Assembly: GCF_029542785.1 (NCBI RefSeq)
Contig: NC_083371.1
Span: 1,350,236-1,414,235, forward strand
Length of the DNA stretch: 64,000 nucleotides
Source: Malassezia japonica
Lineage: Eukaryota; Basidiomycota; Malasseziomycetes; Malasseziales; Malasseziaceae
Direction of reading: 5' to 3'
Shown here in pieces: positions 4,413 through 57,936 of this stretch; position 1 is the first letter of the stretch, and each line of letters begins with the position of its first letter. The notes beneath the pieces were generated by a model. That model saw nothing but the letters and a program-made list of their open reading frames with translations, was not told the origin of the DNA and ran no database searches. A program made the position numbers and the translations under genes.

Positions 4413-6727
4413 ATGTATTCCCCTTCTCCACCGCCGGTCGCGGCGTCCAACGCATATGTGTACCTCAATCACCAGCAGTCCCTGGCGTCGAACCCATATG
4501 CGTCGCACGCGCAGTCGACCCACCACCTCAGCGGCGGCATGAACGCCAGCTCGATGGGCGACATGGGCCTTGTCGGCGGAGCGTCGTCGGCGGCCGCGCT
4601 CAGCTCGGGTCCGCCCGCGAGCTCCGCGTACGGCAATGGTTCGCCGTTCGGCGCGATGAACTCGCCGCGCTACGACACTGCTGGCATGGGCTGGCTGTCG
4701 CGCTTTCCGCCGCAGCAGTCCCATCTGGCCCAGTCCACAAACGGGACGCCGGTCGGCCCTATGCCTGCGGCGCTCAACCACGGTGTGCCCTCGTCGCCGG
4801 GCTATCCTGGCATGGGCTCCTCGCCGCACATGTCAGTCATGGGGTCGTCCGTGTCGCCTGCAACGCCGCAGACACAAACGCAAAGCACGCGTGCGGCGAG
4901 CTCGGCGGGCACCTCGTCCGAGTGGCAGCAACAGATTTACTGTGCAGATATCTCGCGTCAGTCGTACTCGCCGCATCACCATGCGCGCGCGGCTGCGCTG
5001 GCGGCGCGTAGCTCGGTCAACGCCGGCCCGGACTCGAAGAAAGGCATCCAGCTGCCGGCCGGCGCTGCGGCGAACGGCCTGTCGTTCCCGCTGCGCGGCG
5101 ACAGCAAGGGTGGTGACGAGTCCTACGCTGGCCTGAGCACGAGCCCCAGCAAGAGCGCCGGCCTGCGCACGTCCAAAGCGAACGATGAAGAAGCGAACGA
5201 GCAGTCGTGGTCAATGATCGACATGGGGGGTCTGAACCTCAAGACGATCGGCAACGAAGTGTTCCGCTACACCTTCCTCACTTCGCTATTCATTAACCAC
5301 AACAGCATCACGACACTTTCGCCTGCCGTGGTGCAGCTGCGCAACCTCTCTGTACTGGATGCGAGCGGCAACAAGCTCGTCATGATCCCCCCCGAGCTCG
5401 GCATGCTGACCGAGCTGCGCGGACTCTTTTTGTTTGATAACTGCCTCACGGTGCTTCCTCCCGAGCTCGGCACGCTGTACCAGCTGGAGATGCTGGGCAT
5501 CGAAGGCAACCCGCTGCAGGAGAACCTCATGAGCATTATCCAGCACGAAGGCACGCAGGCGCTGATTGCCTTTTTGCGCGACTCGTGCCCCGTGCCGGTC
5601 CCTCCGCCGGAGCGTGAGTGGATTACGCTCGAGACGGACGTGCCGAACGTGTCCGAGGAGGAGTCGGCGAACAACACGTTTGCCGTCCTGTCCTACAATG
5701 TGCTCTGCGAAAAGTACGCGACGCCGCAAATGTACGGCTACACGCCGGGCTGGGCGCTCGTGTGGGACTACCGCAAAGAGTTTATCCTGCAAGAGATCAT
5801 GAGCTACGGTGCCGACATCTGCTGTCTCCAGGAACTGGAGATGGGCCAGTACGAAGAGTACTTTGAGCCAAAGCTGCAACAGAACGACTACGAGGGCCTC
5901 TTTTGGCCCAAGTCGCGTGCGCGCACGATGCGCGAGGACGAGCGCCGCCATGTCGATGGATGTGCGACCTTTTTCAACTCGCGCGTGTACCGTCTGGTGG
6001 ACAAGCAGCTGATCGAGTTTAACCAGCTCGCACTGCAGCGCCCCGACTTTAAAAAGACGGAGGATATCTTCAACCGTGTGATGACCAAAGACAATGTGGC
6101 CGCGATTGCCATGCTCGAGCACCGCAAGACGGGTGCAAAGCTGCTGCTGGCCAATGCACACATGCACTGGGACCCCGCGTTCCGCGACGTAAAGATGGTG
6201 CAGACCGCGATGCTCATGGAGCAGCTCGAGAGCATCAGCAACCGCTTTGCCAAGATGCCGTCGCAGGTGAAGCTGGAAGGCAACGCGACGCCGCCCAAGT
6301 ACACCTCCGGCAAGCAGATTCCCATGGTGATCTGCGGCGACTTTAACTCGACCCCCGACTCGGGCGTATACGAGTTTTTGAGCCAAGGCACCGCCGCCCC
6401 GGATCACGAAGACTTTATGGACCATACCTACGGCACGTACACCTCAGAGGGCCTGCGCCACAGCTGTGCACTGCGCAGCGCCTACAACAGCATCGGCGAG
6501 CTGCCGCTCACGAACCACACGCCCGGCTTCCGCGGCGCGATCGATTATATCTGGTACTCGACCAACACGCTCGCCGCGTCGGGCCTCCTGGGCGAGGTCG
6601 ACGCGACCTACCTCTCGCGTGTAGTGGGCTTCCCCAACGCCCACTTCCCATCTGAGTACGTTGCGAAACTAACCCCAGTCATGTATGTATCCTCGCCGAG
6701 TTTAAAGTCAAGCCGACCAAGGCATAG
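4413..6727 (+). CDS. CCR4: Ccr4, mRNA deadenylase of the CCR4-NOT complex
   Basis: This encodes 763 aa from two exons, 4413-6655 and 6679-6727, with a 23-nt intron at 6656-6678. Ccr4 is the exonuclease that shortens poly(A) tails in the cytoplasm as part of CCR4-NOT. The N-terminus (about 1-260) is low-complexity Ser/Gln/Gly. Leucine-rich repeats follow (about 270-385; LTSLFINHNSITTLSP, LSVLDASGNKLVMIPPELG), which bind the NOT1 scaffold in this family. The EEP nuclease domain (about 420-760) shows VLSYNVLCEKYATPQMYGY, the catalytic Glu in CLQELE, and VICGDFNSTPDSG. Splicing restores the catalytic His near the C-terminus (HFPS-DHV). Without splicing the frame runs on into the next gene's DNA. 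Confidence 0.96.
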
Positions 6728-6803
6728 TCGGCACGCTAGCGCTCACGCTTGGCATACCCATAGCGACCATACCCTGGTAGCCAAGGTACTACGCACCTTC
6801 TTT

Positions 6804-7704
6804 CTATACGTACATGCCCCCGTCGCCGACCTGCCCCGCGTCGCCGGTCGACTTGGACGCGAGGAGGAACTGCGCAGCAATCTGCCCCAGCGTCGTGCCG
6901 GATGCCGGACGCGGGGGGGGGAGCAGCGCACGGAGCACCTCGGCGTACCGCTCGTCGAGCGGCTCGGTGAGCGTCGCGAGGCGCGCATGCGCCTCGTCGT
7001 TCGTGATGCGCTGCAGCTCGTAAGGCACGGCCCAGCGCAGGGGCGGCGCCTGGAAGTTGGCGTGCGGCCGCAGCTTGTACGACGGGATGCTCAGCAGCAG
7101 CGCAGGCAGACGCTCGTACACGCCTTCTGCGTAGAATGCGGCCGCGGCGCCACTCACGGTGTTCGGCACACCCCACGGCGCGTACATCGGCCGCTGGGCC
7201 ATGGTCCATGCCTCGGGTGCTTTCTCCCCGGCCGGGACGTGCGCGAGGAAGCGCAGCGGCGCGTCGACCGGCGGCACGTCCGTGAGGTAGAGACTCGGCG
7301 TGTACGCTTGCACGACCGCGACGCTCGTCGGCTGCAGCGCGCCGAGCACGGCCTGTGCGAGCGGCGCACACGCGTCGCTCCGCAGCCAGTCTGGCCGGGG
7401 TACAAAGAGCAGGGCACTATTTCCAGAGAGAGAAACCCACGCACGCTGCGTCAGCACCACTACATACCTCTACGCCGCTGACCTGCACGGTGTGCGTCGC
7501 AGGCCACGCGGCGGACGGCGCGTGCGCACTGTTCAGCAGCGCGGCGCCCGCGTCGCCCAACAGCACGACGAGCGGCCGCCCTTTTTCGACATGCTCGGGA
7601 ACAATGCACACCTCGACGCTCTGCACAGGCGACGCCTCGTCCTCGTCCGACTCGAGCTCGTGCCGCGGCGGCGGCCCTTCCGCCAAGGCAGGGTCCCAGT
7701 CCAT
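6804..7704 (-). CDS. Candidate proteasome assembly chaperone 1 (Pba1/PSMG1-like)
   Basis: The product is 292 aa from exon 1 (7468-7704) and exon 2 (6804-7445), joined in phase 0 across a 22-nt intron at 7446-7467. The join gives VQVSGVE-RAWVSLSGNSALL without a break. The start is the ATG at 7704; the frame is open upstream but has no ATG. The protein has an acidic N-terminus, then alternating hydrophobic stretches (PLVVLLGDAGAALL, SVAVVQAYTPSLYL) and YERLPALLLSIPSY, loosely like PSMG1. It ends in Met-Tyr-Val, an HbYX motif (hydrophobic-Tyr-any), the C-terminal hook by which Pba1-Pba2 docks on proteasome alpha rings. Overall similarity is weak, so the assignment rests on length, context and the C-terminus. 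Confidence 0.5.
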
Positions 7705-23676: not shown

Positions 23677-25294
23677 ATGAGCGCACAGCCCTCTTCTCAG
23701 GCTCATGTGGCGCCCCCTATCGCCACAGGAAACGAGCCGTTGAACTACAACGCGGCATTGGACCAGACCGCAACCCAGACGCAGTCCAGCTTGAACGACA
23801 CGCAGACGCTGTCGGAACCTGGACAGCCACAAAATGGACAAGTGAGCGAGCCCAAGACCCATCCTGCCCCGAATACGACGCAAGCGCAACCACAAGCGCC
23901 TGTGGATGAAAAGACCGCGAACCAGCTCGAGACGGGTCAAGCGGCCAACACGGGTGGCGGTCCGACGCCGTTTAACCACGGTTTTTGGGACCCAAGCTTG
24001 AAAGGAGTGCGCATGGCTTACTTGAAGCCGCTCGGCTTCGTTACGGTGATTATGATGCTTATTATTTGGGCTTTCATGGCCATGTACTGGGGTTCGCTCT
24101 GGAAAGAAAACGAGCGTAGTCCTAACCTGCGTGTTCTTGTTATGGATTATGACGGTGGCGAAATTGGCTCGTCGATTGTGGATGCGCTCAAGCAGGCCAA
24201 TTCGGCCCCTCTTCCGCATCCCACTTATGTGTTCGCGCAGACGAATGAATACCCCAACGATGACGCGGTCACCAATGCCATTGAGCCCCTTCAGGAATAC
24301 TGGGGAGCGGTGACCATTATGCAGGATGCGACGAGGAAGCTGCAAGCGGCCCGCTCCAGTGGTGACAACAGCTGGAACCCGACGTCGGTGATCACCATCA
24401 TGACGAGCACGGCACGCAACTATGCTGTGGTCCCGAGCATTGTGTTGAGCCCTACGCAGCGCTTCCTGCAATCTGCCACTGCCAAGCTGAACGCTCAGCT
24501 CTTGCACGAGTTCCTTTCTGCATCTGTGAACGATGCCAACGCGATCAACACGGCACTGCGTGCCCCCCAGACGCTTTCTGGCCCTGTTGGGATCCGTATG
24601 AACGAGCTGCGCCCCTGGGACCACTCGGTGGCGATTGCGCCGACCTTTGTTGGTTTGATTTACCTTGTGATTCTTACATTCCAAATCACGATGGCGAGCT
24701 TTGGTGCGCGTCAGCCCATTCAAAAGTTTTTGCGCCTGCGCTCCGTCATTGCGATGCGCCTTGTGACTCCCATTGTGGGCTACATCCCTATTTCGCTCAT
24801 GTTCTCGCTACTGAATGTTCCGTTCAAGCTTCCGTACGGCCGCACGTTCCCCTATGGTGGTGGATTTATGACGTGGTGGTGTGTTTCGTACATCGGCATG
24901 CTTGTCATGGGTCTGGTGCTCGAGTCGGTGATGACGATGGTCGGTCTCAAGTTCATCGGTGTCTTTTTGATCTTCTTCATCATTAGCAACGTGAGCGTGT
25001 CCAACCTGCCTATTGAGCTCTCGCCGAGCTTTTTCAAGTACGGCTATGCTATGCCCTTCTACCAGCTGCGTTCCATCTACATCACTGTCTTGTTTAATAC
25101 GGGAAAGCGTACGTTACCCCAACTGACCTTTAGACATCTTGATTCTCAAGTACATTGGTATCCTGTGGGCCTGGCTTGCATTGGTCTTCCTGACCTTCCC
25201 CTTTGTGATCTGGTTCGACCACAACAAGCGCCGCAAGGAGCACGAGAAGCAGGCCGCTGTGCAGCTCTCCGAGGGTCCGCCCAATTCCCTGTAG
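23677..25294 (+). CDS. SNG1: Sng1-like membrane protein (DUF3533), drug-resistance family
   Basis: Exons 23677-25108 and 25134-25294 (25-nt intron, CTGAC branch site) give 530 aa. Sng1 of S. cerevisiae confers nitrosoguanidine resistance and is an integral plasma-membrane protein. The N-terminal ~105 residues are Gln/Thr/Pro-rich and cytosolic-like. A first TM segment (GFVTVIMMLIIWAFMAMYWG) is followed by a large luminal or extracellular domain (LRVLVMDYDGGEIGSSI...) and then five or six TM helices (about 330-515). Splicing restores the last helix (KHILILKYIGILWAWLALVF) and a basic tail. It lies 94 bp before SMC1 on the same strand. Confidence 0.9.
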
Positions 25295-28300: not shown

Positions 28301-29115
28301 AGGAGGACCGCAGCGAGACGCAGCGCGACTATGGCATCCAGGTCGACTTTAGCCTCCTGACCGATGCCGAGCGCACGGACCGCGGCTCGGCGAAGCAGCG
28401 CGAGCTGCAAGGGCGTATCGACGCCGCGCGCGAGGAGATGGAGCGCCTGCTCCCGTCCGCCCAAGGCGGCAGCCGCCTCGATGCGATGCAGCGCGAGCTG
28501 CAGACGTGCGAGCGCGACATGGACGCCGCGCGCGAGCGTGTACGCGAGGCGCGCGACGAGTTCTTCGGCGTAAAGAAGCGGCGTGTCGACCTGTTCCTCA
28601 AAGCCTACCACCACATTGCGGAGCGTATCGACGGCGTGTACAAAGAGCTCACCAAGAGCAAGGCGGCGCCGATGGGCGGCGTCGCCTACCTCACTCTCGA
28701 GGACACGGAAGAGCCGTACAAGACGGGCATGCGCTATCACGCCATGCCGCCGATGAAGCGCTTCCGCGACATGGACCAGTTGTCGGGCGGCGAAAAGACG
28801 ATGGCCGCGCTTGCGCTCCTCTTTGCCATCCACACCTTCCAGCCCGCGCCGTTCTTTGTGCTCGACGAGGTGGACGCGGCACTGTACGTACCTCTACTCA
28901 CCCAGTGACTCGCACAACGTCGCGCGCGTCAGCGACTATATCCGGCAGCACGCCAGCGACCAGTTCCAGTTTATCGTGATTTCGCTCAAGGTACGGGTAT
29001 CTTGCTGACCTAGGCATCGCTCTACGAACGGAGCCAAGCACTCCTCGGTGTGTACCGCGACCAGGCCGTCAACTCGAGCGCAAGTATTACGCTGGACCTC
29101 GAGCAGTACGCGTAG
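25389..29115 (+). CDS. SMC1: Smc1, cohesin ATPase subunit
   Basis: Five exons (25389-25476, 25500-25722, 25746-28883, 28906-28990, 29014-29115) give 1211 aa; the four introns are 23, 23, 22 and 23 nt. Cohesin holds sister chromatids together. The N-terminus reads MPLQRLLIENFKSYRG, and the Walker A loop GPNGSGKSN (about residues 31-39) is rebuilt across the first intron. Long coiled coils flank the hinge (about 515-660: FPGVHGKLLDLCEPTQKKYE...). The C-terminal head has the LSGGEKTMAALAL signature and Walker B FFVLDEVDAAL, also joined by splicing, then RVSDYIRQHA and ISLKASLYERSQALLGVYRD. It converges with COG8, and the two coding regions overlap by 29 bp. Confidence 0.97.
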
Positions 29116-36182: not shown

Positions 36183-38046
36183 TTACGCTAGCGACGTGGA
36201 GAAGGCCGGCGCGAAGACGGGCAGGGGGTGGGCCTCGGTGTTGAACACCCACGCGTCGAGCGAGAGGGTGTCGCGCGGCGAGAAGAGCAGATAGAGGTAC
36301 TTGAGCGTCTCCGAGAGCCAGAACGTCTCCATCCGGTCGATTTTTTCGGGGGCATCCGCGTCGATGTCGTCGATGCCGCAGTAGCCGCCACGGCCGCCGT
36401 CGACCTGCGCGTGCTTGCGGAAGGCCTCAAAGATCTTCCAGCCCCAGATACGGTAGGTCTCGTCGCCGGTGAGCTGGTAGGCAATGTAGAGCGACTCGAC
36501 CGTCTCGGGGCGCAGGATGTTGCGCGCATCAATCGGCGCGGGGCCATCGCCTCGGGCGCTGCGTTAGACAAGATACGTACCGCTTCACGGTCCACTCGCG
36601 CGCGTGTGTATCCGACGAGTTCGGCGGCCAGAAAAAGGCAATCTCGGGGCCGAGGCCGGTGCGCGCGCTCGTGTAGGTGTTGACGCAGGTGCGCGTCAGC
36701 TCGTGGCCGACGCGCCAATCTTCGATCGCCGCACGCGACGCGCCGCGCGCCGTGCGGGGGGGCGCGAGCGGGGGGGAGCGACGCGGCCGCACCGAGCATC
36801 ATCGTGCCGCCCAGGAAGCACACGAGGTGGTCCTGCTTGGGTAGCTTTTGCCAGCCGGGGCCCTGCGGACCGGGACGGGGAACGAGCTCGACGGTGTACA
36901 CCAGCGGGGGGTTCGTGCGCGTGCCGATGTCGAGCAGGGTGCTCTTGATCGAGTCGAACGCGTGCTCGTACATCTCCTTGTACACCTCCTCGGTGCGGTT
37001 CGTCTGCAGGTACTGCTTCACGAGGTACTCGTAGTACGAGTCGCCGCGCGAGCCGAGGCGGATATCCGTCATGTAAAACTGCCCTTTTTCCGTGCTGCGT
37101 CAGAAGAAAAAACGTACCTCAAAAAGATGGGCAGGATGCCGAGGCTCGGCGGGAGCGACGTCTGGCGTGCATAGTGCATCGGACGCTCGGCCGTGGCCCA
37201 GTACGTGGCGTTGTTCGTGAGGTGCGCGAGGTACTTGAACTCGAGCTGGATCGTCGTCGCCTCGGCGAGGCTGCTCGCATTGTGGTTGTCCTGGTCGGGG
37301 AACGCCTCGCCGGTCGCGAGGTTCACCTCGCGCAGGGGGATGCCGGTCGGCGTCGCAAACGCGGGCAAGAGGCGGTCAGCGAGCGCCTGTGCCTTGGCGA
37401 GGAACATCGCCGCATCGGCCGCCGACGCGGGCAGCGCGCCGGCGGGGGGGTCGGCGATGAGCGCACTGGCCGACAGCAGGCCGCCGAGCATGCGGATCGT
37501 CGTCTCAAACACATTCAGGCGGCCGTCGATCGCCCAGTCGAGCTCGTCACGCACCCAGTCGCGCGCGCGCGCGTACCCCTCGTCCTCGTGCAGGAGGATG
37601 AGCGTGTCGAGCGTGTCGACAATCGTGTAGCCCAGCGGGCGGCCCTCGCCCAAGAGGTTCGAGCCGGACTGGGACAGAGGGTGGAACTCGTCGAGGCCCC
37701 ACGCATGGCGCGCGTACGCGTCCCACGACTGCGTGAACGCCTCACGCACTGCCGCACGCTTCTCGGCATCCTCGCCGTTCTGTGGGTCTTCGGGGATCTT
37801 GTGCACCGGCGGCAGGCGGAACGGCACCTGCATCGCGCGGCCCTCGGGCGGAGCGCCGGCGGGCTCGGCGGGCTCGGCGGGCTCGGCGGGCGTCGGCGGG
37901 GCGCGGTCGTCGCGTGCGTGCCAGCCGAACCATACACCGGCAGCAAGCAGCAATCCTACCAGCGCCCACAGCACGGGCCGCGAGGTCGCAGGCTTCGCGG
38001 GCGGCGCAGGGGGGGGCGCCTTCTTCTCAGCGCGTGGCTTCGCCAT
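36183..38046 (-). CDS. MNS1: ER alpha-1,2-mannosidase (GH47, Mns1-like) with an apparent frameshift
   Basis: Exons 37118-38046, 36581-37094 and 36183-36558 (introns of 23 and 22 nt) code about 605 aa, if one base is skipped. GH47 trims Man9 to Man8 N-glycans in the ER. There is a short cytosolic tail, a TM anchor (PVLWALVGLLLAAGVWFGW), then the domain: DEFHPLSQSG, GYTIVDTLDTLILL, NVFETTIRMLGGLLSA, GDSYYEYLVKQYL, DHLVCFLGGTMMLG, AFFWPPNSSD, RPETVESLYIAYQLTGDETYR and the C-terminal FNTEAHPLP. The frame changes between MMLGAAASLPPARAP and the AIEDWRVGHELTRTC block, exactly where two G7 runs (36756-36762, 36770-36776) occur. One base too many in a run explains it. Confidence 0.88.
36756..36776 (-). 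other. Homopolymer-associated +1 frameshift in the GH47 gene
   Basis: Two runs of seven G (C on the coding strand) are separated by seven bases. The upstream reading frame and the downstream conserved frame differ by one base across this point, and no GT-AG intron with a branch site fits. Either the assembly carries one base too many here or this allele is frameshifted. Confidence 0.7.
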
Positions 38047-38084: not shown

Positions 38085-39407
38085 ATGATCTCGGTGCGTT
38101 GCGCGACGGACTGACGTAGGGATTCTTTGTGTTTAACCTGCAAGGTGCGCTGCTGGTTTCGCGGCTGCTGCGCAATGATCTGGGGTACGTCGCTGGGCTA
38201 ACGCAGGCGCGGCATTGCCGATGCGTTTCGCGTGCACGTCCTCGCGAACCCCGATAGCAGCGTGCCGATCGTGACGCTCGGGAGCACGAGCTTCTTTTGG
38301 GTGCGCGAGGAGGACGTGTACCTAGTCGCGGCGACCAAGTGCAATGCGAATGCGGCGCTCGTGTTCGAGTTCCTGTACCGCTTCCAGTCGATCTGGCGCT
38401 CGTACTTTCGCGCGCCGCTGTGCGAGGACGCGGTCAAGAAAAACTTTGTGCTGGTGTACGAGCTGCTGGACGAGGCGCTCGACTTTGGATACCCCCAGAA
38501 CAGCGATGTGCATGCGCTCAAGATGTACATTGCCAACGACGATATCCGCCTCGAGGACGTGGTGCGCGACGATCCGCGCATGAGCGTCGCGCCGGCCGCG
38601 CAGCAGGTGAGCTGGCGGCGGCCGGATATCCGGTACCGCAAGAACGAGTGTTTCCTGGACGTGATCGAGACGGTGAACCTGCTCATCAGCAGCCAAGGTG
38701 CGGTGCTCCGCGCGGACGTCGACGGCAAGGTGATGATGCGCGCGCACCTCAGCGGCATACCCGAGTGCAGCGTCGGGCTCAATACGGATCTCGGGCTCGA
38801 AGGGCACACTGCGCGGCGCAGCGCGACGGCGGTCAACCTGAACGACTGCACCTTTCACCCCTGCGTCCAGCTCGACCAGTTTGACCAGGACCGCAGCATC
38901 CACTTTGTGCCGCTCGACGGCGACTTTGAGCTGATGCGGTACCGCGCGACGGCCAACGTCAAGCTCCCGATCAAGATCCAGGCAGTGGTCGAGGAGGTGC
39001 AGAACAAGCGCGTCCTCTACACCATCGTCCTCCGCGCGACGCTTGACGAAAAGCTGCAGGCGACCAATGTCGCGCTGCGCATTCCCGCACCCCGCAGCAC
39101 GACCCACGCGCGGTGCTCTGCGACACTGGGTAAGGCGCGGTACGAGGCGGAAGACCACTTCATTCTGTGGCGCATACCCAAGGTGCAGGGCGGCAGCGAG
39201 CACACGCTGCACGCCGAGGCAGAGCTCGCGCCCAGCACCCAGCCGTGGGCTCGCCCGCCAATCGAGGTGCACTTTTCCGTGATGATGTTTGTCGCTTCCG
39301 GCCTCGCGGTCCGCTACCTCAAGGTCGTCGAAAAAAGCCACTACCGCAGCGTCAAGTGGGTACGGTACGTGACGCGCGCGGCCAACTCCTATCTCGTACG
39401 TATCTAG
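38085..39407 (+). CDS. APM4: AP-2 adaptor complex subunit mu (clathrin endocytosis)
   Basis: Exons 38085-38093, 38120-38184 and 38207-39407 give 424 aa; introns are 26 and 22 nt. Exon 1 codes only Met-Ile-Ser. Joining gives MIS-GFFVFNLQGALLVSRLLRNDLG-RGIADAFRV, the standard mu-chain start. The longin-like N-domain has PIVTLGSTSFFWV, ATKCNANAALVFEFLYRF and NFVLVYELLDEALDFGYPQNS. The C-terminal mu homology domain has SWRRPDIRYRKNECFLDVIETVNLLIS, GLNTDLGLEG, MRYRATANVKLPIKI and WARPPIEVHFSVMMFVASGLAVRYLKV. TLGSTSFF with the overall motif set points to AP-2 mu rather than AP-1 mu. The TAG stop overlaps the SEN54 stop in a shared CTAG. Confidence 0.95.
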
Positions 39408-43251: not shown

Positions 43252-44231
43252 TTACCCAAGACGCACAGCATTGGCGCCACTCGCAAATTTGGGGCGCTTC
43301 GCCGGCGGCGCGTCGCGCGCGGCAGGCACCGAGGGGGGGGCAGACACAGGCGCAGCCTCGGCCTGCTTCTGCTTCTGCGCCTCGGCCTGCGGCTTGACGT
43401 GCTTTTCGAAATGTTTGCGCTGGGTAAGGGAGGTGGGGGGGAGGACGTACGCGTTCTTTCTCGAGCTCGGCATTCTTCGCCTTGATCTTCTCCTGGCGTT
43501 GCTCGCTCTTGCCGCCACCGCCCGCGGTGAGCTCGACATTAATCTGGCGGTTATGGAACTGCGAATGGTGAAAACGCAGTGCTTTTTGCAACGCAGTCGG
43601 CGAGCTGAACTCGGCAAACGCACAGCCTCTCGAGACGGGGGCAGAGGGGTCCCGTGCTTTGCCTTTGGCAATCGACTTGCGCTTCGAGTTCGAGAGACCT
43701 TCGAGCGCTTTGGGGTCCGCACGCTTCGTGAGCAGACGCACTTGGGGTGTCTCGCCACACGTCTCGGCAAAGTGCTTCGCAAGCATTTCGGCCGTCACGT
43801 CAAAGGACATGTTGCCTGCGTTAGAGTGGGGGCGTACCAACAAACACGATATATTTCTGGCCGGGCTTTGTCTCGGCAGGGGCAGGAGCAGGGGCAGCAA
43901 CTTCTTTCGCGACGCCGTCATCGTCAAAGACGGTGCGCGTCGCACCCTCGCTCGAGGGGGGAGTCTTGCGCTTCTTGCTCTTTTTGGGCTTTGGCGCGTC
44001 GGTCGAGGCAGCGGCTTCGTCGGCATGCGCCGCAGGCTCGGTAGACTGCGTAGGCTCTGTAGCCGGCTCTGCAGCAGGCTCCGCAGCAGGCTCGGCTGCC
44101 GCCTCGGCCGCAGGCGTAGGAACTGTCCCGGTAGACTCGTTCGTATCCTCGCTCTTGTCCTCCTTCACATCGGCATGCTTCTTTGCACGAAACTTGGCCG
44201 CTTTCTGCTCACGCTTTGTCGTACCCGCCAT
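43252..44231 (-). CDS. NOP6: Nop6-like RRM protein, small-subunit ribosome biogenesis
   Basis: Exons 43838-44231, 43451-43815 and 43252-43419 give 308 aa; introns are 22 nt and 31 nt. The N-terminus (1-125) is Lys-rich (MAGTTKREQKAAKFRAKKH) and then a degenerate AAEPAAEP repeat. The join restores the RRM core KYIVFVG-NMSFDVTAEMLAKHF. The domain continues VRLLTKRADP, KGKARDPSAPVSRGCAFAEF and LQKALRFHHSQFHNRQINVELTAGGGGKSE, the last block being the Nop6 hallmark. The C-terminus is basic and Ala/Pro-rich. Nop6 acts early in 90S pre-ribosomes. The promoter carries the same 14-bp RRPE-like box as ENP1 and a TGTGGAGG element. Confidence 0.88.
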
Positions 44232-44400: not shown

Positions 44401-44917
44401 TCACCATACGCGCGACTTTTCGACGAGCGCAAGGACCGTATCTAGGCGATTCTTTTCCTTAGCCAGGTCCTCGTTATCTGTCGCTGGGCTCAGCGCGAGG
44501 CCGACGACCACCGGCTTCATCGGCCCCATCATCGTGTCGGCCGTGTACAAGTCCGCGCAGATCTTGGCCGCGATCTGAGTGGCATAGAGTGCGTACAGGT
44601 CGCCCATCTCGTTCGGCGGCGTGCCAAACAGCGGCACGAGCGAGACGGTCGGCACGCGAATCGTGTCCTGCCGCCCCTTGTTATTGAGAAACTCGGCAGT
44701 CTGCTCGCCCGGGTTCACCTGCGCTTGGACCTGCGTGAGTGCGTGCACGTACGAGGTACCCCACCTTGCCGACCTGTGTGACAAGCACGAGCGTGCGGTC
44801 GTCGTACTCCTGGCACAGCACCGTTACCTCCTGATCGTCTACCTTGTCCGTATTCTGTGCCGTACGCACGATATTTTGAGGAAGCTGCTCGGCGAGCACG
44901 CCCTGAGGAGAAAGCAT
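44401..44917 (-). CDS. PSMG3: Proteasome assembly chaperone 3 (PSMG3/PAC3-like)
   Basis: Exons 44753-44917 and 44401-44730 (22-nt intron at 44731-44752) give 164 aa. PAC3 with PAC4 helps build the proteasome alpha ring. The start is the ATG at 44917 (MLSPQGVLAEQLPQN). Family features are EVTVLCQEYDDRTLVLVTQVGKVGYL, aligning with the LVLVTQFGKMGT stretch of PAC3; a middle strand RVPTVSLVPLFGTPP; a helix LYALYATQIAAKICA; a strand KPVVVGLALSP; and the C-terminal helix ending in Val-Trp as in animal PSMG3. Confidence 0.82.
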
Positions 44918-44999: not shown

Positions 45000-45106
45000 G
45001 GTAGGATGGCCGAGTGGTCTAAGGCGCTTGATTCAAGTATTGTTGAATATTTCGACGGACTCCCGTTGCACCCAAGTTATCCTGGGTTCGAATCCCAGTT
45101 CTACCA
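45000..45106 (+). tRNA. tRNA-Leu (anticodon CAA), probably intron-containing
   Basis: The acceptor GGTAGGA (45000-45006) pairs with TTCTACC (45099-45105); discriminator A is 45106. The D-arm is GCC-loop-GGC and the T-arm CTGGG-TTCGAAT-CCCAG. The anticodon stem begins CTTGA, with loop TTCAAG giving anticodon CAA at 45034-45036. The 107-nt span exceeds a mature tRNA-Leu (about 84 nt), so an intron after position 37 (45038 onward) is likely. An ATTCAA...TTGAAT hairpin pairs the anticodon with the intron, as in other eukaryotic pre-tRNA-Leu(CAA). The 3' intron border and the variable arm cannot be placed confidently by eye. Confidence 0.85.
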
Positions 45107-45279: not shown

Positions 45280-46514
45280 ATGTCCGACAGTCGCCATATT
45301 GTGATTGTGGGTGGTGGTATTATCGGCACGAGCATTGCGTACTACTTGAGCCGTACCAAGGATGCCCCTGCCATTACGTTGCTCGAGTCGAGCAAGGGTG
45401 TGGCACCTGGCGCTTCGGGCAAGGCCGGCGGCTTTCTTGCGCTGGACTGGCATGGCATGGCGACATCGAGTCTCGCTGCATTGAGCTACAAACTTCATCG
45501 CGACCTTGCGAAGGAAAATAACGGTGCGGAGCGCTGGGGCTACCGCGAAGTCGAGGTACGTTTTATTTTTTTTTGGACATCCTCTTACACAGACGCACCA
45601 ACTCTCGCTCGACACCTCGCGCAAGCCGCGCTCGCGCCCCAAGATCAACTGGCTGAACCCCAATGTGTACATCTCGACGAGCCCGATTGGTGGCGGTGGA
45701 TCGACCGCCCAGGTTACCCCGGGCGATCTGACGCGTTTCCTTGCGGACCAGGCCCAGGAGGCCGGTGTGCAGCTGCGTCTTGCGACCAAGGCCGTGGGCC
45801 TTCAAATGGACGCCGGCAAGGTGACTGGCGTCAAGGTCGAAGCTGACGGAAAAGAGGAGACGATCCCTGCGACGGATGTCGTGATTGCGACTGGGTACGT
45901 TACATTGTGTCTCTTTACTCACACAGCCCCTGGACCGGCAAGCTGCTGCACAAGTGGTTCACGCCCGACACCCTCCCCTCGTTCCTGCGCGCCGCGGCGC
46001 AGATCGATGGCAGCCGTGCGCACAGCATCGTTATTCAGGCTGCCAAGAACCACCAGCTGTCTGCTGACTGCTTCTTTTCCGAGATGCGCTACGGCAACTC
46101 GGCCGGCGCGCCGGAGCTGTACATCCGCCCCAAGGGTGTGGCGTACATCTCGGGCGGCACCGACGACGTTCCGATCCCGGAACTTGCCGACGACGTCCAG
46201 TTTGACAAGAAGTACACCGACGAGTTGCAGCGCCAGGCGGCCGTGGTCTCGCCAGAGTACCTGGACGTGAAGAGCGATGCGACGCTCAAGCGCGAGCAGG
46301 CGGTACGTTTTCATGACTAATGTAGTGCTATCTCCCGCTCTCTCCGCGCACCGCAGCTCCGATCATCGGTGGCAACGCCGAGTCTGGCATCTACCTTGCC
46401 GCCGGCCACGCCGTGTGGGGCATCAACAACAGTCTCGGCACCGGCAAGGTCATGGCCGAGTTGCTGCTCGACGGCAAGGCGACCAGTGCCGACATCCGCC
46501 ATCTCCAGCCGTAG
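45280..46514 (+). CDS. TDA3: FAD-dependent oxidoreductase of the DAO fold (Tda3-like)
   Basis: Four exons (45280-45555, 45593-45894, 45927-46302, 46326-46514) give 380 aa; introns are 37, 32 and 23 nt. The N-terminal dinucleotide fold HIVIVGGGIIGTSIAYYLS binds FAD, followed by LLESSKGVAPGASGKAGGFLA. The joins give REVE-THQLSLDTSRK, IATG-PWTGKLLHKWF and KREQA-CYLPLSPRTAAPIIGG. The C-terminus reads GIYLAAGHAVWGINNSLGTGKVMAELLLDGKATSADI, typical of DAO-family oxidoreductases. The set matches yeast Tda3, which is linked to endosome and late-Golgi recycling; its substrate is unknown. It converges with leucyl aminopeptidase across 25 bp. Confidence 0.9.
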
Positions 46515-46539: not shown

Positions 46540-48162
46540 TTACGCGTACGACAGACGACGAGCAAACTCGACCAGCGCGCGCACCGGGCGGCCGGTGAGG
46601 CCCTTGCCTTGGTAGTCGTTGATCGTGTTGCTCGCGGCTTCCATCGATCCGGCAATGTCAATGTGCGCGTAGCGCACCTTGGCCGCCTCGCCCTTGGCGC
46701 GGTCCTCGAGGCCGGTGACGAACTGCTTCAAAAAGATTGCCGCGGTGCACGAGCCAGCGGGACGGCCGCCGGTGTTGACCAGGTCCGCGTTCGTCTTGGA
46801 AATCTGGGGCAGAAAGCTGTCCGCGAGCGGCATGCGCCAGCACAGGTCGTGCTCGGCCTCGCTCGCGGTCTTGAGCTCCTGCCAGAGCTCCTCCGACTCG
46901 GTAAAGACACCCGAGTAGACGTCGCCGAGCGCAATCACGCACGCGCCGGTCAGCGTCGCAATGTCGACAAGCGTGTGCGGCTTGTACACATCGCTCGCGT
47001 AGGAGATCGCATCCGCCAGCACAAGACGGCCCTCGGCGTCGGTGTTGTCCACTTGCACCGTGAGGCCGTTGCGCGCCTCAAAGATGTCACCGGGCTTGGT
47101 CGCCTTGCCGCTCGGCATGTTCTCCGTGAGCGGCGTAAAGGTCGACACGTTGATCGGCAGGCCGAGCTGCGCGATGGCGAGCGTCGACGCGACGGCCGCC
47201 GCCGCACCGCCCATGTCCGCACGCATCAGGTCCATACCCGCACCCGGCTTGATGCTGATACCGCCCGTGTCAAAGGTAATGCCCTTGCCAACAAACGCCA
47301 GCGGCGCAGCGTCCTTGTCAGGCGCACCGTGGTAGTGCACCTCGACAAACTTGAGCGGCTGCTCGGAGCCCTGGGCGACCGACAAGAAGAGGTTCATCTT
47401 TTGGTCCCGCACCCAGTCCGCGTCGCGCACGATCACCTCGGTGTTGGGCACGTTCTTGAACGCGGCCACAATGCGCTCGGCAAAGATGGTCGGCGTCAAG
47501 AGGCTGGGTCAGTCAAAGCAAAGCACGTACTTGGCTGCCGTCTCTTGCAGCTCGCGCGACCAGTTCTGCGCGCGGCCGTACACCTCACCGGTCCACCAGG
47601 AGAGGGGCGTCGCGGTGTCCTTCAGCACGTCGCTGTCGTCGCGCAGCTGCTTCTTCTCCGCATCGGTCGTGGCGCCTTGCAGGGGAATGGGCGTGATGTG
47701 CCGACCGCCTTGCAGGTGGCCGGGCTTACCCCACGCGGGCGCCGTGCCGCGCGTCTTGAAGTGGTTCACGCTCCAGAGGCCGAGCAGCGAGCCGACCGCC
47801 GCCGCGTGGGGGCTCGCGAACGAGTCGACCGCCACGCTCGGCTCGCCGTCCACACCGAGGTCGCGCAGCGCGCGCGCACCCTTGGCCGCATCCAGGCGCG
47901 TGCGCTCCAGGCGCTCGTTCCGCAGAAAAGCGTCGGCGGATGGCATCGCGTCCGGCGCGGTGGTCGGCGCCTGCTTCTGCTCGCCGAGGGCCACGGCCGC
48001 AATCGGCACCGAGTCGTTGGGGTAGAGCACACGCATCTCGCCGGGCTTGGAGGCTGACGCACGGCTCGCCTTCCACTGCGCAGCAATCTGCGTACCAAGC
48101 TCACCAGAGAGCGCAGTCGCGCCGGCAGCATCTACAGCAACCACCTTTCCAATCAGCGACAT
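46540..48162 (-). CDS. Leucyl (cytosol) aminopeptidase, M17 family
   Basis: Exons 47531-48162 and 46540-47503 (27-nt intron at 47504-47530, CTGAC branch site) give 531 aa. M17 enzymes are hexameric two-metal aminopeptidases. The N-terminal domain starts MSLIGKVVAVDAAGATALS. The join reads AAKYVLCFD-free: ETAA-N-LLTPTIFAERIVAAF. The catalytic domain has VGKGITFDTGGISIKPGAGM with metal-binding Lys and Asp, MRADMGGAAA, the family signature NTDAEGRLVLADA and a C-terminal HIDIAGSM block. The ATG lies 20 bp from the XPF stop, with TGTGGAGG at 48174-48181 squeezed between them. Confidence 0.95.
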
Positions 48163-48182: not shown

Positions 48183-50858
48183 CTACGTGGCAGCGGCGTG
48201 GAGAAAGGCGTGGAGCTTCTTTCCCGGCTCGCTTCCGATAAGCTCCTGGATGGCAGCGAGGGGCATCGCGCACAGCGCCTGGATGCTCTCGACATGATTC
48301 GTGAGGTAAACATAGTTCTTGGCCGTGACGCCGGGCATGGCACGTAGCATATCGACCGGTGTCAAATGGAACGTGTGCTCGCCAACCACATCGTCGTCCA
48401 TGCCGATGGCCGCGGCCGCCCCCGCGTCGGGCTCGTCGTGGTTCTGCTTGAGGTCCGAAAAGATTTCCGCGGTTGCGTACGGCGACGAGGACCAAATGAG
48501 GCGCAGGCGGGGGAAGGACAGCGTAAGGAGCACGAGCTTAGACTGCACGTCGAGCTCCGTGGCCGAGGTGCGTGCGGTGATCGTCTTGGCATGCTTCGCC
48601 TCGCCGAGCGCCTCGAGCGTAAAGGCACGGTCCTGGTCAAACTCGATGAGCAGGATGGGGTGCTGGTAGTGGATCGACATCGCCTCGCATTGGGTATACA
48701 GGCGGCCCGAGTTGAGACTCTGGACCAAGTCGGTGAGGCTCTTGCGCTCGACGCACATGTCCGAGGCAATCACATAGTCGCCGACTTGCAGCGTGCAGGG
48801 AATCACGCGCATCCCGGCCGCGTGCAGCAGCGAGGGCAGACTCGAGCGAAACTCGCGCATGTCCACCACCACCGACGGGGGCTGCAGCGTCTGCGAGCCG
48901 CCCGCGACACGTGAACTCAGGTTGCGCAGCATGCGCTGGTCTGCGTCTTCCTCCGGCTTGCCATCGACCGTGAGGGGTATGGCCATCGTCGCTTTCTGCC
49001 GGATAAGACGCTCAAAGGCGTCTTTTTCGCGCCGGAGCTGCGCGAGGTACATTTGCTCCTCGACCGAGTCAGTATAGAGCATAAAGTAGACTTGCACCTC
49101 CGCACGATGGATCGTGCGGTACACCTCGACCTGGCGCACAAACGAGGGGCTAGGATCGTACATGATCACGTATCGCGGACGCAGCTCCTGCAGTAGACTG
49201 TCGTCTTCCTCGCCTCGATAGGTGTGGATCACCACAATGTTGCCGAGATCCACCAGGCCGAAGTAGTCCTCGAGCGTCTCTTCTGGCTCATCACTCTTGA
49301 GCTCCCACGGCTGCGCACGGGGGGCATCAGGAGGGAGCTCGGGCAGGTTTTGCGGCGCTGCATCGCCGTGGGTGTGCACCGGCATCGCCATCCCGCCGCG
49401 GATTCGCCGCCGCTTTAGCGCAGAGGAGCGCGCAGATTTGCGCTGCAGCGCCTCGCTCAGCGCCTCGTCCGCACCGGGCGTCTCTTTTGTCCGCTGAAAG
49501 GCTTGCACACTCTGCTTCCACTGCAAGTACTCAGCAAAGGTCGCGGCCATCACCGGACGCCCAGGGTGCTCTTCGTCCTCGTCGGCACTCGAAAGGAAGG
49601 AACGCAGCTGCGCAGACGTACGCTCCGCATCTGTCATAATCAAGATGGGCGAGGGGCGCAAGTGCACCTCTTGCTCAACCTCGTCCAATACATCGAGGAG
49701 CAGCTTCCACTTGGGCGGCTCTTCAAGCGTGAGCTCCGTCGTTCCTTCGCTCGTCTCGTGCCACACACGGCGCTGCGCTTCGCGGAACACAATATTCGAG
49801 GCATCGCTCAGAAGCCACGCCGACTGCCGCTGCCGCCCGGGCTCGCCGGCATTCGTGGCAAGGATCGTCTCGAGATAGGTGTGGAACGACACGGCATCGT
49901 ACGAAATCAGGTAGTGCAATACCGTACGAAGCGTTCCAAGGTCTGCAACCAGCTGCTTGGTCGAGGGCGCAAGGCGGTGCCACACGGGGTCGAGCTGGCG
50001 GCGGACCGTGACATCAAACGCCCGGTGCATCACACTCTCCACGCTAAACTCGTCCACTTCTTCGGCCAGCTTGCTGCGCCGCACTTCGGCGAGCGTCGCC
50101 TCAAGGCACTCGACAATCGCCGACTGAATTGCACGCATCGAGGGCGTCGGCGGCTGGTGCAGCTCAATCACATCTGCGCGGTGCTGGCCAAGGTCGCGGT
50201 CGATCGACTGGTGGAACCGCGGCCAGATGTCGACAGTGCGCAGGCGAAGCTGCCCCATAACCGTCTGCAGTGTCGTATTTCCAGATGCGAGATGCTCGGC
50301 ATGGCTAGAGAATGCTTTGAGGAAGCCATCCTGACGTGAGACGCGCCACCTACCTGGTTTTCCTGCCGGTAAATGCGGAGAATAAAGGCCTCAATCGAGG
50401 TGGGCGAGACGCTGCATTAGAAAACAAAGTACACACCGCTCAGCGTGTAGCACCACCATCCCGGTAATGAGCGACGTGGGGATGCGCTTGGCAAGCATGT
50501 CGACAATGAGAATGCGCGACGTGACACTCAAAATCCCACCAGCCATGTAGGCATCGGCACGCTGCTTTGCAGCCGTTTCGTGGTGTAAATTTTGTACAAT
50601 ATCATGCGGAAGGCCAAGAGTGCCAAGATCATGGTTCAGGCCGGCCAAGTCGCGCGGCGAGGCATTGATGAGCAGGACCAAGTTCTGTGGGCTATAGTAC
50701 ACGCGCAGCAACGTAGCGACAATGCGCCGCAGGCCTAGTCCGGGGGCCAGCACAACAAGTCTATCGCGCACCTCTGGGTCATCACTATCCGGTACGAGAC
50801 TCGAGACAATCGCTCGGTGATACGGGAGCAGCCATTGGCGCGACGCTGGCAGCGTCAT
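48183..50858 (-). CDS. RAD1: XPF/Rad1 structure-specific endonuclease (nucleotide excision repair)
   Basis: Exons 50437-50858, 50354-50411 and 48183-50330 (introns 25 and 23 nt) give 875 aa. XPF pairs with ERCC1/Rad10 to cut 5' of DNA lesions and in crosslink repair. The helicase-like N-terminal half has RIVATLLRVYY, ADAYMAGGILSVTSRILIVDMLAKRIP and SLITGMVVLHAERVSPTSIEAFILRIYRQENQ-DGFLKAFS, rebuilt over both introns. The nuclease domain (about 630-760) has SVVVDMREFRSSLP, VGDYVIASDMCVERKSLTDLVQSLNSGRLYTQ with the ERKxxxD core, and HPILLIEFDQDRAF. The tail is a tandem HhH (MLRAMPGVTAKNYVYL, IQELIGSEPGKKLHAFL). Confidence 0.96.
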
Positions 50859-55199: not shown

Positions 55200-55675
55200 G
55201 ATGAAAAGCCAACCACAACTCCTACTTTGGCTTGAACGCAGTAATGAACATTCTGTGATGAATGCTAAAGTAATATGAAGTTTGTCCATTCCCTCTTAAG
55301 GAGTCCGTCACGATGATGAAGGACTCACCGATGGTTTTACTATCCGCTTTGCTTTTGGATTTCTAGTGCTTATTCTATGGGCGGTTTCGTTACATATTTT
55401 AATGAATTTGGCGGCGTTCTTGTACTACCCACCGTAATTATAGTTGAAAGAATCGTGTTTTCGCTCTAAACAATGGTTCAGATGTACACTTGATTTAGTC
55501 ACAGAATATGCTCCACGTTGAGGACCAAGAATTTGCCAAATTGTACCCAATTTTGGATCGCTTAGCACACATTCTGGGAATTGCACTCCATTTGCTTTTG
55601 CCTAACAGTCATTCAATGCACACTTGTTAAACACTATTTACCTGTTTTGAGTCCTCAAAAAACCGTACTGTGGCC
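55200..55675. other. AT-rich intergenic gap, convergent
   Basis: This is a 476-bp gap between the 3' ends of the Ser-rich lipase and the DUF1399 gene. I see no gene, RNA or repeat in it. Confidence 0.5.
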
Positions 55676-57936
55676 TCATGCGCCAAAACCACTACTGCCA
55701 CAGTGTACAATAGGTCCAAATATGACCCCACCTGGGGCAAGCAATTGCGAGGAAGACACAGGGCCATAGGTCACATTTCTCCGCATATTATAGCCATAGG
55801 AGAATTCGGGGCTGAGATGTGCCATACACTCTGCCTGTCCACGAACAGGCGAGACGACCGGAATCTCGTTCCGGGACCTTTGCGTTGCTTGCAATGACGC
55901 AACCATTGGACCATAGGAGTGAACACCTGCAACACACATGCCATCACCGTTACCAAGTTGATTTTTAACGCTGGCAGGATGTCCTCCTTTACCAGGAATG
56001 TTGGCGTCATAAACAGGGGCGAAATAAAACGGTTCGAGGTCGGAGTATGCAATAGGCTCACTGATTATAGTTAGTACCACAATAACAAAATGATCGAATA
56101 ACTTACTCAAACTCATCTTCATGCTGCTCCTCGGAGTCAGGTCGAATTACAGCGCTATGTGTACTTGGGTTGGTTTGGTGAGATTGAGTATCGGTTTTCT
56201 CATGGAGGGGCTGCGCCGATTTTGACTTTGCTTTGGTTTTGAGTTTGGTAAAAAGTCCCTTCGGAGATTTGAAAGTGGACTGTTTTCCGTTGCGCAAAAC
56301 AATTGAATAAGGCTGTTTGTATTCCGCTGTCCAAAGCGACATCGTATCGTCAAAAGCATCACGCAAATATGATTTGTCCACCTTGTCATTATGATCGACG
56401 AAACGCAGCACAGTGGCAAAACAGTCACAATAATATGATTGTTTGAGTTGATGCGTGTGCCAAGCCAAGTCAATGTCCAAAGTAGGGCAAAGCATCTTCA
56501 AATGTTTCGCAGTAATGTTAAGCCACGCATGATAACGCGAAATTGATGCTGTATGGTCAAGCTCAACCCTGGAATCGAGCCAACCGAGCTTGTCAATGCT
56601 TTCAATGAATCGAAATTGACGCTGGACAGCTGCCACGAGGTCACGACTGGCAGGACTGAGTGCATTTGCTTCCAGGTAAAAACTCATCATAAGGCTCACT
56701 CGCCGCCGAAGATTCAAGCTTGCCGGACTTTCCATGGTTGTATTGACAGAGTTGATTTTCTTTTGGGTTGTTGCAAGTACCAACCTTGATATTTCATGGA
56801 TGTCGTGACCAGCTGCTTCATAAATATCATTCGGACTGGCATGAGCAGACTCAATTTCACCGTAGTTGTCCGCAAACCTGGTCATCTTTAGTTCACCATC
56901 TGGACCTAGCATAATCCCTGATCCTGTCCGACTGGTATCAAACAATCTAACAAGGATAGGAGAGTAGGGGTCGCTTGTGAAAAAACAGCCAGTTACACCA
57001 GAGATCCCTGCGCCTGGGAGCCGGAAAGAGTGAGTTTGCGAGTCGCCACGAGCCCACATATGCACCGCATCAAGCCAACGGCGCCCCATGGTCTTGGGTT
57101 GGTTCGTGACAACAGTACAATTGTCACATTTAAAACTCCAGGTGGGTTGGACAATGTCTTCCCAACGCATTGGTTTTGGTTGGTTACAATTGTGGCACGG
57201 CATAGGGCAAGTCGCATATCCTGGTGCGAACAAATCGAAGGGCTCCCCAGTAAGCGTCTCCCATTCTTGCGCTGCCTCGGGTGCATTATAGTGAAGTTCC
57301 AAAGGGACAAGGGGAGAAGCGACTTCGCAAAGTGGAAACTGGATCCCAGCAAGATTCAAACGAGATGGCATATAAAAAAGGTCTTCGTTGTAGCGAAATG
57401 GATTAAGTAAATACGTATGCCAAATCATAAGCACATCAAGGAGAGGGAGAAGCGAAGAATCGAGTAACACAGGATCCGTCCGGTATCTCCTCTCGTCTTG
57501 GGAAGACAAAAGAGGAGGAATGTTGAGACGCATGGTTTGTTGTGCAGGCGTGGCGCCAGTCCTCGCGGGGTTGAGCACATTGTTAACGTAAATTTCAAAA
57601 CGTCGGAGTGCCTTGGTCAAAAAAAATAGACCATCGTAAAGATGAACCTTTGCACGAGTCCGCTTCAAAACCGAGAGTTCCAGAGCTATGTCCGATCGTA
57701 TCTCTGTAAGGAGGTGGTCCATGTGCGCCATAGGATGGTGGTACCATATCCATATAACCTGGAAGAGTTAATGCCGATGATTTAAGCTGCTTGAATGCGG
57801 CCAGAAGTTTCAGATGAGCGTTGAGTTCATTTGCAGTTATGAGCGGTGAGAATGATCGGCCACCAATTTGATAATGCAGGTCATTCTTGACCTTGTTTGT
57901 AGGAACAAAGCATTGGTCGACAGTTGCCCTAGCCAT
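55676..57936 (-). CDS. DUF1399 / glycine-rich domain-containing protein family member
   Basis: Exons 57759-57936, 56107-57703 and 55676-56060 give 719 aa. The last intron (56061-56106, 46 nt) is canonical (GTAAGT, TACTAAC, CAG) and adds a C-terminal exon that would otherwise be missed. The first (57704-57758, 55 nt) has an ambiguous donor and acceptor; an alternative also stays in frame. Family features are an N-terminal HLKLLAAFKQLK helix, LMIWHTYLLNPFRYNEDL, paired CxxC motifs (CPMPCHNCNQP, FKCDNCTVV), and the repeat of the W-H motif in DIDLAWHTHQL-KQSYYCDCF. The new C-terminus ends HCGSSGFGA, a short form of the Gly/Cys-rich end of fungal homologues. The function is unknown. Confidence 0.85.

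What the first reader, a model, noticed from the sequence alone, without database searches (positions are those of the whole stretch)
6656..57758. Ultra-short introns of stereotyped architecture, mode 22-23 nt
Joining frames to restore conserved protein sequence gives 27 introns. Eight are exactly 22 nt (7446, 28884, 30574, 30693, 36559, 38185, 43816, 44731) and seven are 23 nt (6656, 25477, 25723, 28991, 37095, 46303, 50331). All eight 22-nt introns fit GTAYGY-N7-CTNAY-SCAG. The branch-point A is therefore 5 nt before the final G, and only about 16 nt after the 5' splice site. Most spliceosomes need far more room. The usual donor is GTACGY, mismatching U1 at +4. This is at or near the lower limit for spliceosomal introns in fungi and suggests an adapted spliceosome.
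Basis: partly seen in the sequence, partly recalled or inferred. Interest (0 to 1): 0.85.

Follow-up and report, generated by a model that had tools for sequence, protein, structure and literature searches.

The report
Yeast introns pinned at 22 nucleotides
A skin yeast of the genus Malassezia appears to carry thousands of introns of exactly 22 nucleotides and hardly any shorter, a very sharp lower limit on the RNA segment its splicing machinery seems able to remove, and some public gene models of its relatives go wrong at such introns.

Summary
All 8 named 22-nt introns fit GTAYGY-N7-CTNAY-SCAG. In the 8.43-Mb genome that motif occurs 1,972 times at exactly 22 nt, against 1 for the reversed control. 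Lengths 15-21 together give 23 against 15 control; lengths 23-53 give 566 against 58. In 264 kb, 37 of 37 scorable 22-nt candidates (80 in all) shift the reading frame as excision predicts. A gene model with no length preference puts 78 of 190 introns at 22 nt and 17 at 23. Spliced proteins align ungapped across junctions in AP-2 mu, XPF and calcineurin. The organism is a Malassezia. Both arms show a floor: 16 nt from G1 to the branch A, then 5 nt to the final G. U2 and U6 keep canonical boxes; U2AF35, SF1 and a U2AF65 candidate are encoded; U1 was not found, so an 'adapted spliceosome' is not shown. Very short Malassezia introns are in print (M. restricta median 30 nt); my searches found no report of a 22-nt mode or cliff. 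Five public Malassezia proteins fail at these introns. No RNA evidence was available.

The parts
6656..6678 (+). 23-nt intron near the 3' end of a CCR4/CNOT6-like deadenylase gene (name from reading the protein)
   Evidence: excision gives ..AHFPSDH-VCILAEFKV..
7446..7467 (-). 22-nt intron, unidentified 292-aa protein (no Pfam hit)
25109..25133 (+). 25-nt intron in a membrane protein gene (by reading)
25477..25499 (+). 23-nt intron in SMC1; excision restores Walker A GPNGSGKS
25723..25745 (+). 23-nt intron in SMC1 (FQR-VITPSGSSEYRYNG)
28884..28905 (+). 22-nt intron in SMC1 after DEVDAAL; read through or truncated at the same place in relatives' proteins
28991..29013 (+). 23-nt intron in SMC1 (FIVISLK-ASLYERS), donor GTACGG
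   Evidence: missed by the gene model
30574..30595 (+). 22-nt intron, WBP11/NpwBP-like gene
30693..30714 (+). 22-nt intron inside the stretch matched by the NpwBP domain
   Evidence: PF12622, 8.3e-10, residues 26-91, junction at 49
36559..36580 (-). 22-nt intron, GH47 alpha-mannosidase-like gene (name from reading the protein)
37095..37117 (-). 23-nt intron, same gene
38094..38119 (+). 26-nt intron, AP-2 mu gene, after codon 3
38185..38206 (+). 22-nt intron, AP-2 mu gene
   Evidence: alignment to 6oxl_M ungapped across the junction
43420..43450 (-). 31-nt intron, RRM protein gene
43816..43837 (-). 22-nt intron at the start of an RRM
   Evidence: PF00076 residues 129-162, junction at 131, close to the edge of the match
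44731..44752 (-). 22-nt intron, PAC3-like gene (Pfam match below its cut-off); a 34-nt in-frame alternative (44719-44752) cannot be excluded by frame
45556..45592 (+). 37-nt intron, FAD oxidoreductase gene
   Evidence: PF01266 residues 7-364 span it
45895..45926 (+). 32-nt intron, same gene
46303..46325 (+). 23-nt intron, same gene
47504..47530 (-). 27-nt intron, M17 aminopeptidase-like gene (name from reading the protein)
50331..50353 (-). 23-nt intron, XPF/Rad1 gene
   Evidence: alignment to 6sxa_F ungapped across the junction
50412..50436 (-). 25-nt intron, XPF/Rad1 gene
   Evidence: alignment to 6sxa_F ungapped across the junction

Best explanation
These are ordinary GT-AG (U2-type) spliceosomal introns of a Malassezia yeast that have shrunk onto a physical floor of this organism's spliceosome. 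The floor is the sum of two minima: 16 nt from the first intron G to the branch A, and 5 nt from the branch A to the last G, so 22 nt in all. Shown by computation: existence, reading-frame effect, motif, genome-wide number and the cliff below 22 nt. Inferred: that genome-compacting deletions push introns down, and that introns of 21 nt or less are removed by selection because they no longer splice. Also inferred: the 5'-arm floor is set during assembly, where the 5'-site and branch-site recognition factors touch, rather than by catalysis, because Stentor introns are reported with the branch A at +10 and the same 5-nt tail. Real introns: about 0.97. Hard floor near 22 nt: about 0.9. Assembly as the limiting step: about 0.45.
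For: Frame test: 37 of 37 scorable 22-nt loose-motif candidates (of 80) and 6 of 6 at 23 nt (of 11) shift as excision predicts; below 22 nt, 0 of 4 scorable candidates of length not divisible by 3 do. Genome-wide strict motif: 1,972 at 22 nt vs 1 control; 23 vs 15 at 15-21 nt; 566 vs 58 at 23-53 nt. Length-free gene model: 78 of 190 introns at 22 nt; 7 singletons below, 4 of them multiples of 3. GT-AG-only model with no branch motif: 25 introns at 22 nt, against at most 9 at any length for five other border pairs. Two arms: 75 of 144 well-scored introns sit at (16 nt, gap 1); only the 15-, 18- and 21-nt calls lack a good branch box at 16 nt or more. Homology: AP-2 mu, XPF, 17 of 27 22-nt junctions inside Pfam matches in 8 genes, calcineurin ungapped at its three 22-nt junctions in 117, 118 and 120 of the 120 listed homologues. 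U2 and U6 canonical. Orthologous SMC1 intron read by hand from relatives' proteins as 22, 23, 25 and 26 nt.
Against: No RNA reads or lariats were available; branch points are inferred from sequence. U1 was not found. The loose motif at 15-21 nt is about twice the shuffled expectation (16 vs 8.3), so a few shorter introns cannot be excluded. The deletion-pressure part is untested: lineage-specific gain at 22 nt is also possible, since the SMC1 28884 intron leaves no trace in the M. restricta protein nor the calcineurin introns in the M. arunalokei protein, though correct splicing would look the same. The frame test disagrees for 13 of 76 scorable loose-motif candidates, none of them at 22 or 23 nt; 0 of 6 agree at 45 and 60 nt; I take these as motif accidents.
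Confidence: 0.85

Rival explanations
1. The 22-nt class is a family of recently copied introns (introner-like elements) whose size is that of the inserted unit, not a splicing limit.
For: One length dominates sharply; +8 G and +9 C are enriched in the 22-nt class (44 and 49 of 78, against 5 and 7 of 29 at 23-25 nt); the SMC1 28884 and calcineurin introns leave no trace in some relatives' proteins.
Against: The N7 linker shows no copy similarity: mean 2.155 matches of 7 between pairs against 2.197 expected from column frequencies (117 introns). The cliff is one-sided, with a decaying tail above 22 nt and near-chance counts below. The orthologous SMC1 intron differs in length between relatives (by hand).
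Confidence: 0.1
2. Selection holds 22 nt as an optimum (best splicing efficiency, or guaranteed frameshift on retention) rather than as a hard steric limit.
For: 22 and 23 are not multiples of 3, so retention always shifts the frame. In Paramecium bursaria introns of 23-26 nt are spliced best and both shorter and longer ones worse (PMC12862383, passages).
Against: P. bursaria still has introns down to 15 nt; here 20 nt, which also shifts the frame, is at chance (1 hit vs 1.0 shuffled). Multiples of 3 are not clearly depleted among slightly longer introns (24-27 nt: 5, 7, 4, 2). An optimum should have two shoulders; here there is one.
Confidence: 0.2
3. Assembly or sequencing indels, or programmed frameshifts, mimic introns.
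For: Two frame breaks beside poly-C runs were seen by eye (SF1 gene; the gene at 36.7 kb), so indels may occur here.
Against: Those breaks lie at homopolymers without splice motifs. Indels would not generate 1,972 motif-bearing 22-mers, and relatives' proteins read into the same insertion at the same place.
Confidence: 0.01

Closest known systems
Malassezia restricta introns (PMC6473144 passage; PMC9241646 passages with Table 1) and 'very short introns' of Malassezia (PMC7426719 passage)
   Same: Same genus, very short introns in a compact genome; the M. restricta annotation allowed introns of 15 nt and used RNA-seq.
   Different: M. restricta is reported with 2,150 introns, mean 37.2 and median 30 nt; here the mode is 22 nt, with an estimated 2,500-3,400 introns of that length. 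No 22-nt mode, cliff or branch geometry in the passages I saw.
Stentor coeruleus 15-16-nt introns (PMC9505925, passages)
   Same: One dominant length, fixed branch position, 5 nt from branch A to the intron end, canonical U2 and U6 boxes, U2AF present.
   Different: Branch A at +10 there and +17 here; no strong branch consensus there, strong CTNAY here; ciliate, not fungus.
Trichomonas type B introns, 23-25 nt (PMC12316389, passages)
   Same: Ultra-short, branch site fused with the 3' splice site.
   Different: 24 such introns in T. vaginalis, T-rich filler; here thousands, with mixed filler (58% GC).
Paramecium introns, median 24-25 nt (PMC12862383, passages) and nucleomorph introns of 18-20 nt (PMC5014332, passages)
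   Same: Tight length distribution; efficiency depends on length.
   Different: P. bursaria reaches down to 15 nt; neither is a fungus.
Cryptococcus neoformans 'ultra-short' introns (PMC11913375, passages)
   Same: Basidiomycete yeast with a short-intron genome.
   Different: Ultra-short there means under 60 nt, with an average intron of 56 nt, more than twice the length here.

Membership tests
U2-type spliceosomal introns | GT..AG borders with a conserved donor hexamer | tested here: met
   78 of 78 modelled 22-nt introns begin GT and end AG, which the model requires; donor +3 A 76, +5 G 77, +6 T 74 of 78
U2-type spliceosomal introns | branch-site motif upstream of the 3' splice site | tested here: met
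   CTNAY at positions 14-18; A17 in 77 of 78; by sequence only
U2-type spliceosomal introns | U2 and U6 snRNAs with canonical branch and ACAGAGA boxes | tested here: met
   (123.1 and 80.8 bits)
U2-type spliceosomal introns | U1 snRNA pairing with the donor | tested here: inconclusive
   not found by RF00003 (41 of 132 candidates scored) or by three patterns
U2-type spliceosomal introns | 3'-site factors SF1, U2AF65, U2AF35 | tested here: met
   the U2AF65 candidate has 224.4 bits, below the TIGR01642 cut-off of 310.3
U2-type spliceosomal introns | removed from RNA through a lariat | not testable with these tools
   no RNA data held
Stentor-type tiny introns | 15-16 nt with branch A at +10 or +11 | tested here: not met
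   22 nt, branch A at +17; 15-21 nt near control level
Stentor-type tiny introns | altered Cwc25 and Isy1 segments at the active site | not tested
Introner-like elements | introns are similar copies of one another | tested here: not met
   N7 pairwise similarity no higher than column expectation (117 introns)

The most novel reading that the evidence does not exclude
22 nt is a molecular ruler: the span at which the 5'-site complex (U1, then U6) and the branch complex (SF1/U2) just touch in this lineage. Introns of the furfur-yamatoensis side of Malassezia have been driven onto that limit genome-wide, and the +8 G/+9 C signature of the 22-nt introns marks an extra contact needed only at zero slack, perhaps pairing of +9 Y with a U6 base 5' of ACAGAGA. 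The machinery, including an unrecognised U1, has changed to permit it.
Probability: 0.3. Interest if true: 0.82.

Novelty: new variant of a known kind. Interest (0 to 1): 0.64.

Why it matters
A yeast genus with thousands of introns stacked exactly on a minimum gives a natural saturation experiment on how little RNA a spliceosome can accept, and separates the two arms (16 nt and 5 nt). Stentor and Malassezia share the 5-nt tail but differ in the 5' arm, which makes the source of the 5'-arm limit testable. There is a practical side: some public Malassezia proteins fail at these introns. SMC1 of M. furfur reads through and that of M. yamatoensis stops; calcineurin of M. vespertilionis, M. yamatoensis and M. 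brasiliensis departs at the junctions. Proteome-based work on the genus may inherit such errors.

Tried and rejected
Loss of U2AF35 as the cause of the short branch-to-AG spacing (an idea recalled from Yarrowia): rejected, U2AF35 is present at 63% identity to the S. pombe protein.

U1 with a compensating change opposite +4: not found. Patterns ATACNTACC..GATCANGAAG (0 hits), ATACNTACCT..ATCA (6 hits at 5 places, none with the canonical T), TACC..GATCANGAAG (8 hits vs 2 control). Two of those 8 were fetched and gave no U1 match at E up to 10; the other 6 were judged only from the matched letters. The patterns rest on a recalled U1 consensus. Unresolved, not evidence of absence.

Introners: rejected. 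U6 pairing for +8/+9: +9 Y could pair with a G 5' of the box, +8 G is not explained; left as a lead, not computed.

GT-AG-only gene model: right peak, but many wrong boundaries (101 introns against 90-100 for control borders), so its list was not used alone.

Paper searches on Malassezia introns: (one search listed 30 of 131); on short introns in general. The library holds open-licence papers only; the M. sympodialis proteogenomics paper (DOI recalled) is not held.

Full report
What was checked. The window is C2:1350236-1414235 of an 8,433,779-base genome in 9 contigs. The organism is a Malassezia: the SMC1 protein of the window matches M. furfur (67%) and M. yamatoensis (66%), with a 97% metagenomic protein as nearest, and calcineurin from C1 matches five named Malassezia at 77-86%. 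The species was not determined.

The named introns. Four of the 15 lie in SMC1. Excision restores the Walker A motif GPNGSGKS, the stretch QRVITPSGSSEY, DEVDAALD and FIVISLKASLYERS.

Genome-wide number and cliff. GTAYGY-N7-CTNAY-SCAG occurs 1,972 times; the pattern read backwards occurs once. The same motif with a shorter middle, for all lengths 15 to 21 together, occurs 23 times against 15 in the control. Only 1 of those 23 is 21 nt long, and at least one lies inside a longer match (C1:512568-512590). With a longer middle, 23 to 53 nt, it occurs 566 times against 58; some of these span two neighbouring introns or hold a shorter one. With a looser motif in 264 kb (the window plus C1:200001-400000), real against Markov-shuffled counts are 1 and 1.1 at 21 nt, 80 and 0.8 at 22 nt, 11 and 1.2 at 23 nt, and 16 and 8.3 for 15-21 nt together.

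Reading frame. For each loose-motif candidate the best coding frame was scored 90 nt upstream and downstream with a model trained on long open frames. Of 80 candidates at 22 nt, 37 were scorable on both sides and all 37 shift by one base as excision requires; at 23 nt 6 of 6 scorable (11 candidates). Over lengths 15-60 nt, 63 of 76 scorable candidates agree; the 13 that do not are at 17, 19, 20, 29, 45, 50, 53 and 60 nt. Controls: the reversed motif gave one hit and nothing scorable; an AC-ended motif gave 0 of 6 agreement at lengths not divisible by 3.

Length distribution without a length prior. A two-strand gene model with donor, branch and acceptor matrices but flat length preference introns in 264 kb: 78 at 22, 17 at 23, 5 at 24, 7 at 25, then a long thin tail. 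The 7 calls below 22 nt are singletons, 4 of them multiples of three. The initial matrices came from 22-nt motif hits, so this model is not independent of the motif; the GT-AG-only model is, and also peaks at 22 (25 introns; at most 9 at any one length for five other border pairs). That model's boundaries are poor and its total (101) is hardly higher than the controls (90-100). Some long introns are fusions of neighbouring genes. Of 80 loose 22-nt hits the model; among the 7 others is 44731, where it prefers a 34-nt in-frame variant.

Geometry. Of 164 introns up to 70 nt, 144 have good donor and branch scores. 75 of them have 16 nt from G1 to the branch A and one base between CTNAY and NAG. 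The 23-nt introns lengthen either arm (10 with 17/1, 6 with 16/2). Five of the 144 have a best-scoring box closer than 16; the 22-nt and 24-nt ones among them have a nearly equal box at 16/1 and 18/1, and only the 15-, 18- and 21-nt calls, all multiples of three and so without effect on the frame, have none. Two of the 78 modelled 22-nt introns were dropped for weak branch boxes. In the 22-mers +4 is C in 57 of 78, and +8 G and +9 C are enriched (44 and 49 of 78); not so at 23-25 nt (5 and 7 of 29) and little at 26-60 nt (12 and 14 of 42). Phases are even (27, 28, 23). Very small internal exons seem to occur: at the end of L033 two motif 22-mers flank 15 bases.

Homology. Spliced AP-2 mu aligns to 6oxl_M without a gap at the 22-nt junction; the N-terminal part of spliced XPF aligns to 6sxa_F without gaps at its 23- and 25-nt junctions. 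Pfam matches run across introns in the FAD oxidoreductase and NpwBP genes; in the RRM gene the junction lies near the start of the match; the PAC3 match is below its cut-off; one of the five proteins had no match. In 8 C1 genes with two to five 22-nt introns, taken from the 12 that one search printed, 17 of 27 junctions fall inside Pfam matches and 10 do not (positions). Calcineurin with three 22-nt introns aligns without gap or insert within 10 residues of the junctions, at 10 or more identities of 20, in 117, 118 and 120 of the 120 best of 5,264 homologues.

Relatives. The five departures in that comparison are all in three NCBI-named Malassezia proteins: M. vespertilionis lacks the stretch between the first two junctions, M. 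yamatoensis has a foreign stretch there, and M. brasiliensis lacks 9 residues after FSIE; Malassezia sp. CBS 17886 and M. arunalokei are continuous. In SMC1, proteins P0002, P0003, P0004, P0006 (M. furfur) and P0007 read straight into the intron after DEVDAAL, and P0005 (M. yamatoensis) stops there. Read back by hand, their introns would be 22 (P0002, P0004), 23 (P0006), 25 (P0007) and 26 (P0003) nt; back-translation allows GTACGT at one end and CTNAC-N-CAG at the other in each. The M. restricta protein (P0121) and metagenomic proteins P0011 and P0012 are continuous there, as are P0009 and P0010. A protein alone cannot tell absence from correct splicing, so gain against loss is open. M. sympodialis is treated as intron-poor in a fungal survey (PMC8476143, passages); how far missed ultra-short introns bear on that was not tested.

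Machinery. U2 (123.1 bits) keeps GUGUAGUAUCUGUU and U6 (80.8 bits) keeps AUACAGAGA. U2AF35, a U2AF65 candidate (224.4 bits, under the family cut-off) and SF1 are encoded. U1 was not found.

How it likely works. The same genome carries 22-nt introns and longer ones with the same donor and branch motifs, so the short ones need no separate system (inference). At 22 nt, 7 bases remain between the donor hexamer and the branch pentamer, and there is no room for a pyrimidine tract after the branch. Stentor is reported with 15-nt introns, branch A at +10 and 5 nt to the end (PMC9505925, passages). The shared 5-nt tail suggests a common limit for docking the 3' site; the longer 5' arm here suggests that assembly on the pre-mRNA, not catalysis, sets the Malassezia floor (inference, about 0.45).

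Literature position. Very short Malassezia introns are in print as a phrase (PMC7426719, passage), and M. restricta has mean 37.2 and median 30 nt (PMC9241646, passages with Table 1) from an annotation with a 15-nt minimum (PMC6473144, passage). Searches found no listed paper reporting a 22-nt mode, cliff or branch geometry in Malassezia, in an open-licence library that lacks many papers; of the listed papers I saw passages of a few only. A 2025 paper calls a 23-nt Trichomonas intron comparable only with Stentor (15) and Bigelowiella (18) (PMC12316389, passages).

Verdict. Real, not artefact; a new variant of a known kind. The surprise is the sharpness and number, not the mere shortness.

Noticed in passing
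L033 1600-1660 (C1, SF1 gene) and window about 36700-36780: Reading frame of SF1 and of the GH47-like gene breaks beside runs of C without a splice motif (seen by eye); possibly assembly indels in homopolymers.
   Followed up: partly
L033 3060-3160 (C1:63943-64001); also C1:518743-518807: Two motif 22-nt introns flank stretches of only 15 and 21 nt (apparent microexons).
   Followed up: no
C1:311584-313733 and other C1 genes with 3-5 introns of 22 nt: 22-nt introns cluster in some gene models (up to five in one, which may be a fusion of two genes) while 89 of 139 modelled genes have none.
   Followed up: no
window 45000-45106: tRNA gene hit of 107 bases against a 71-position model, so with an apparent insert, perhaps a tRNA intron.
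   Followed up: no
P0006, P0005, P0158, P0162, P0123: Public Malassezia proteins (M. furfur and M. yamatoensis SMC1; M. yamatoensis, M. vespertilionis and M. brasiliensis calcineurin) read through, stop or mis-join at ultra-short introns.
   Followed up: partly
22-nt introns, positions +8 and +9: G at +8 and C at +9 are enriched in the 22-nt class and not at 23-25 nt; not explained.
   Followed up: partly
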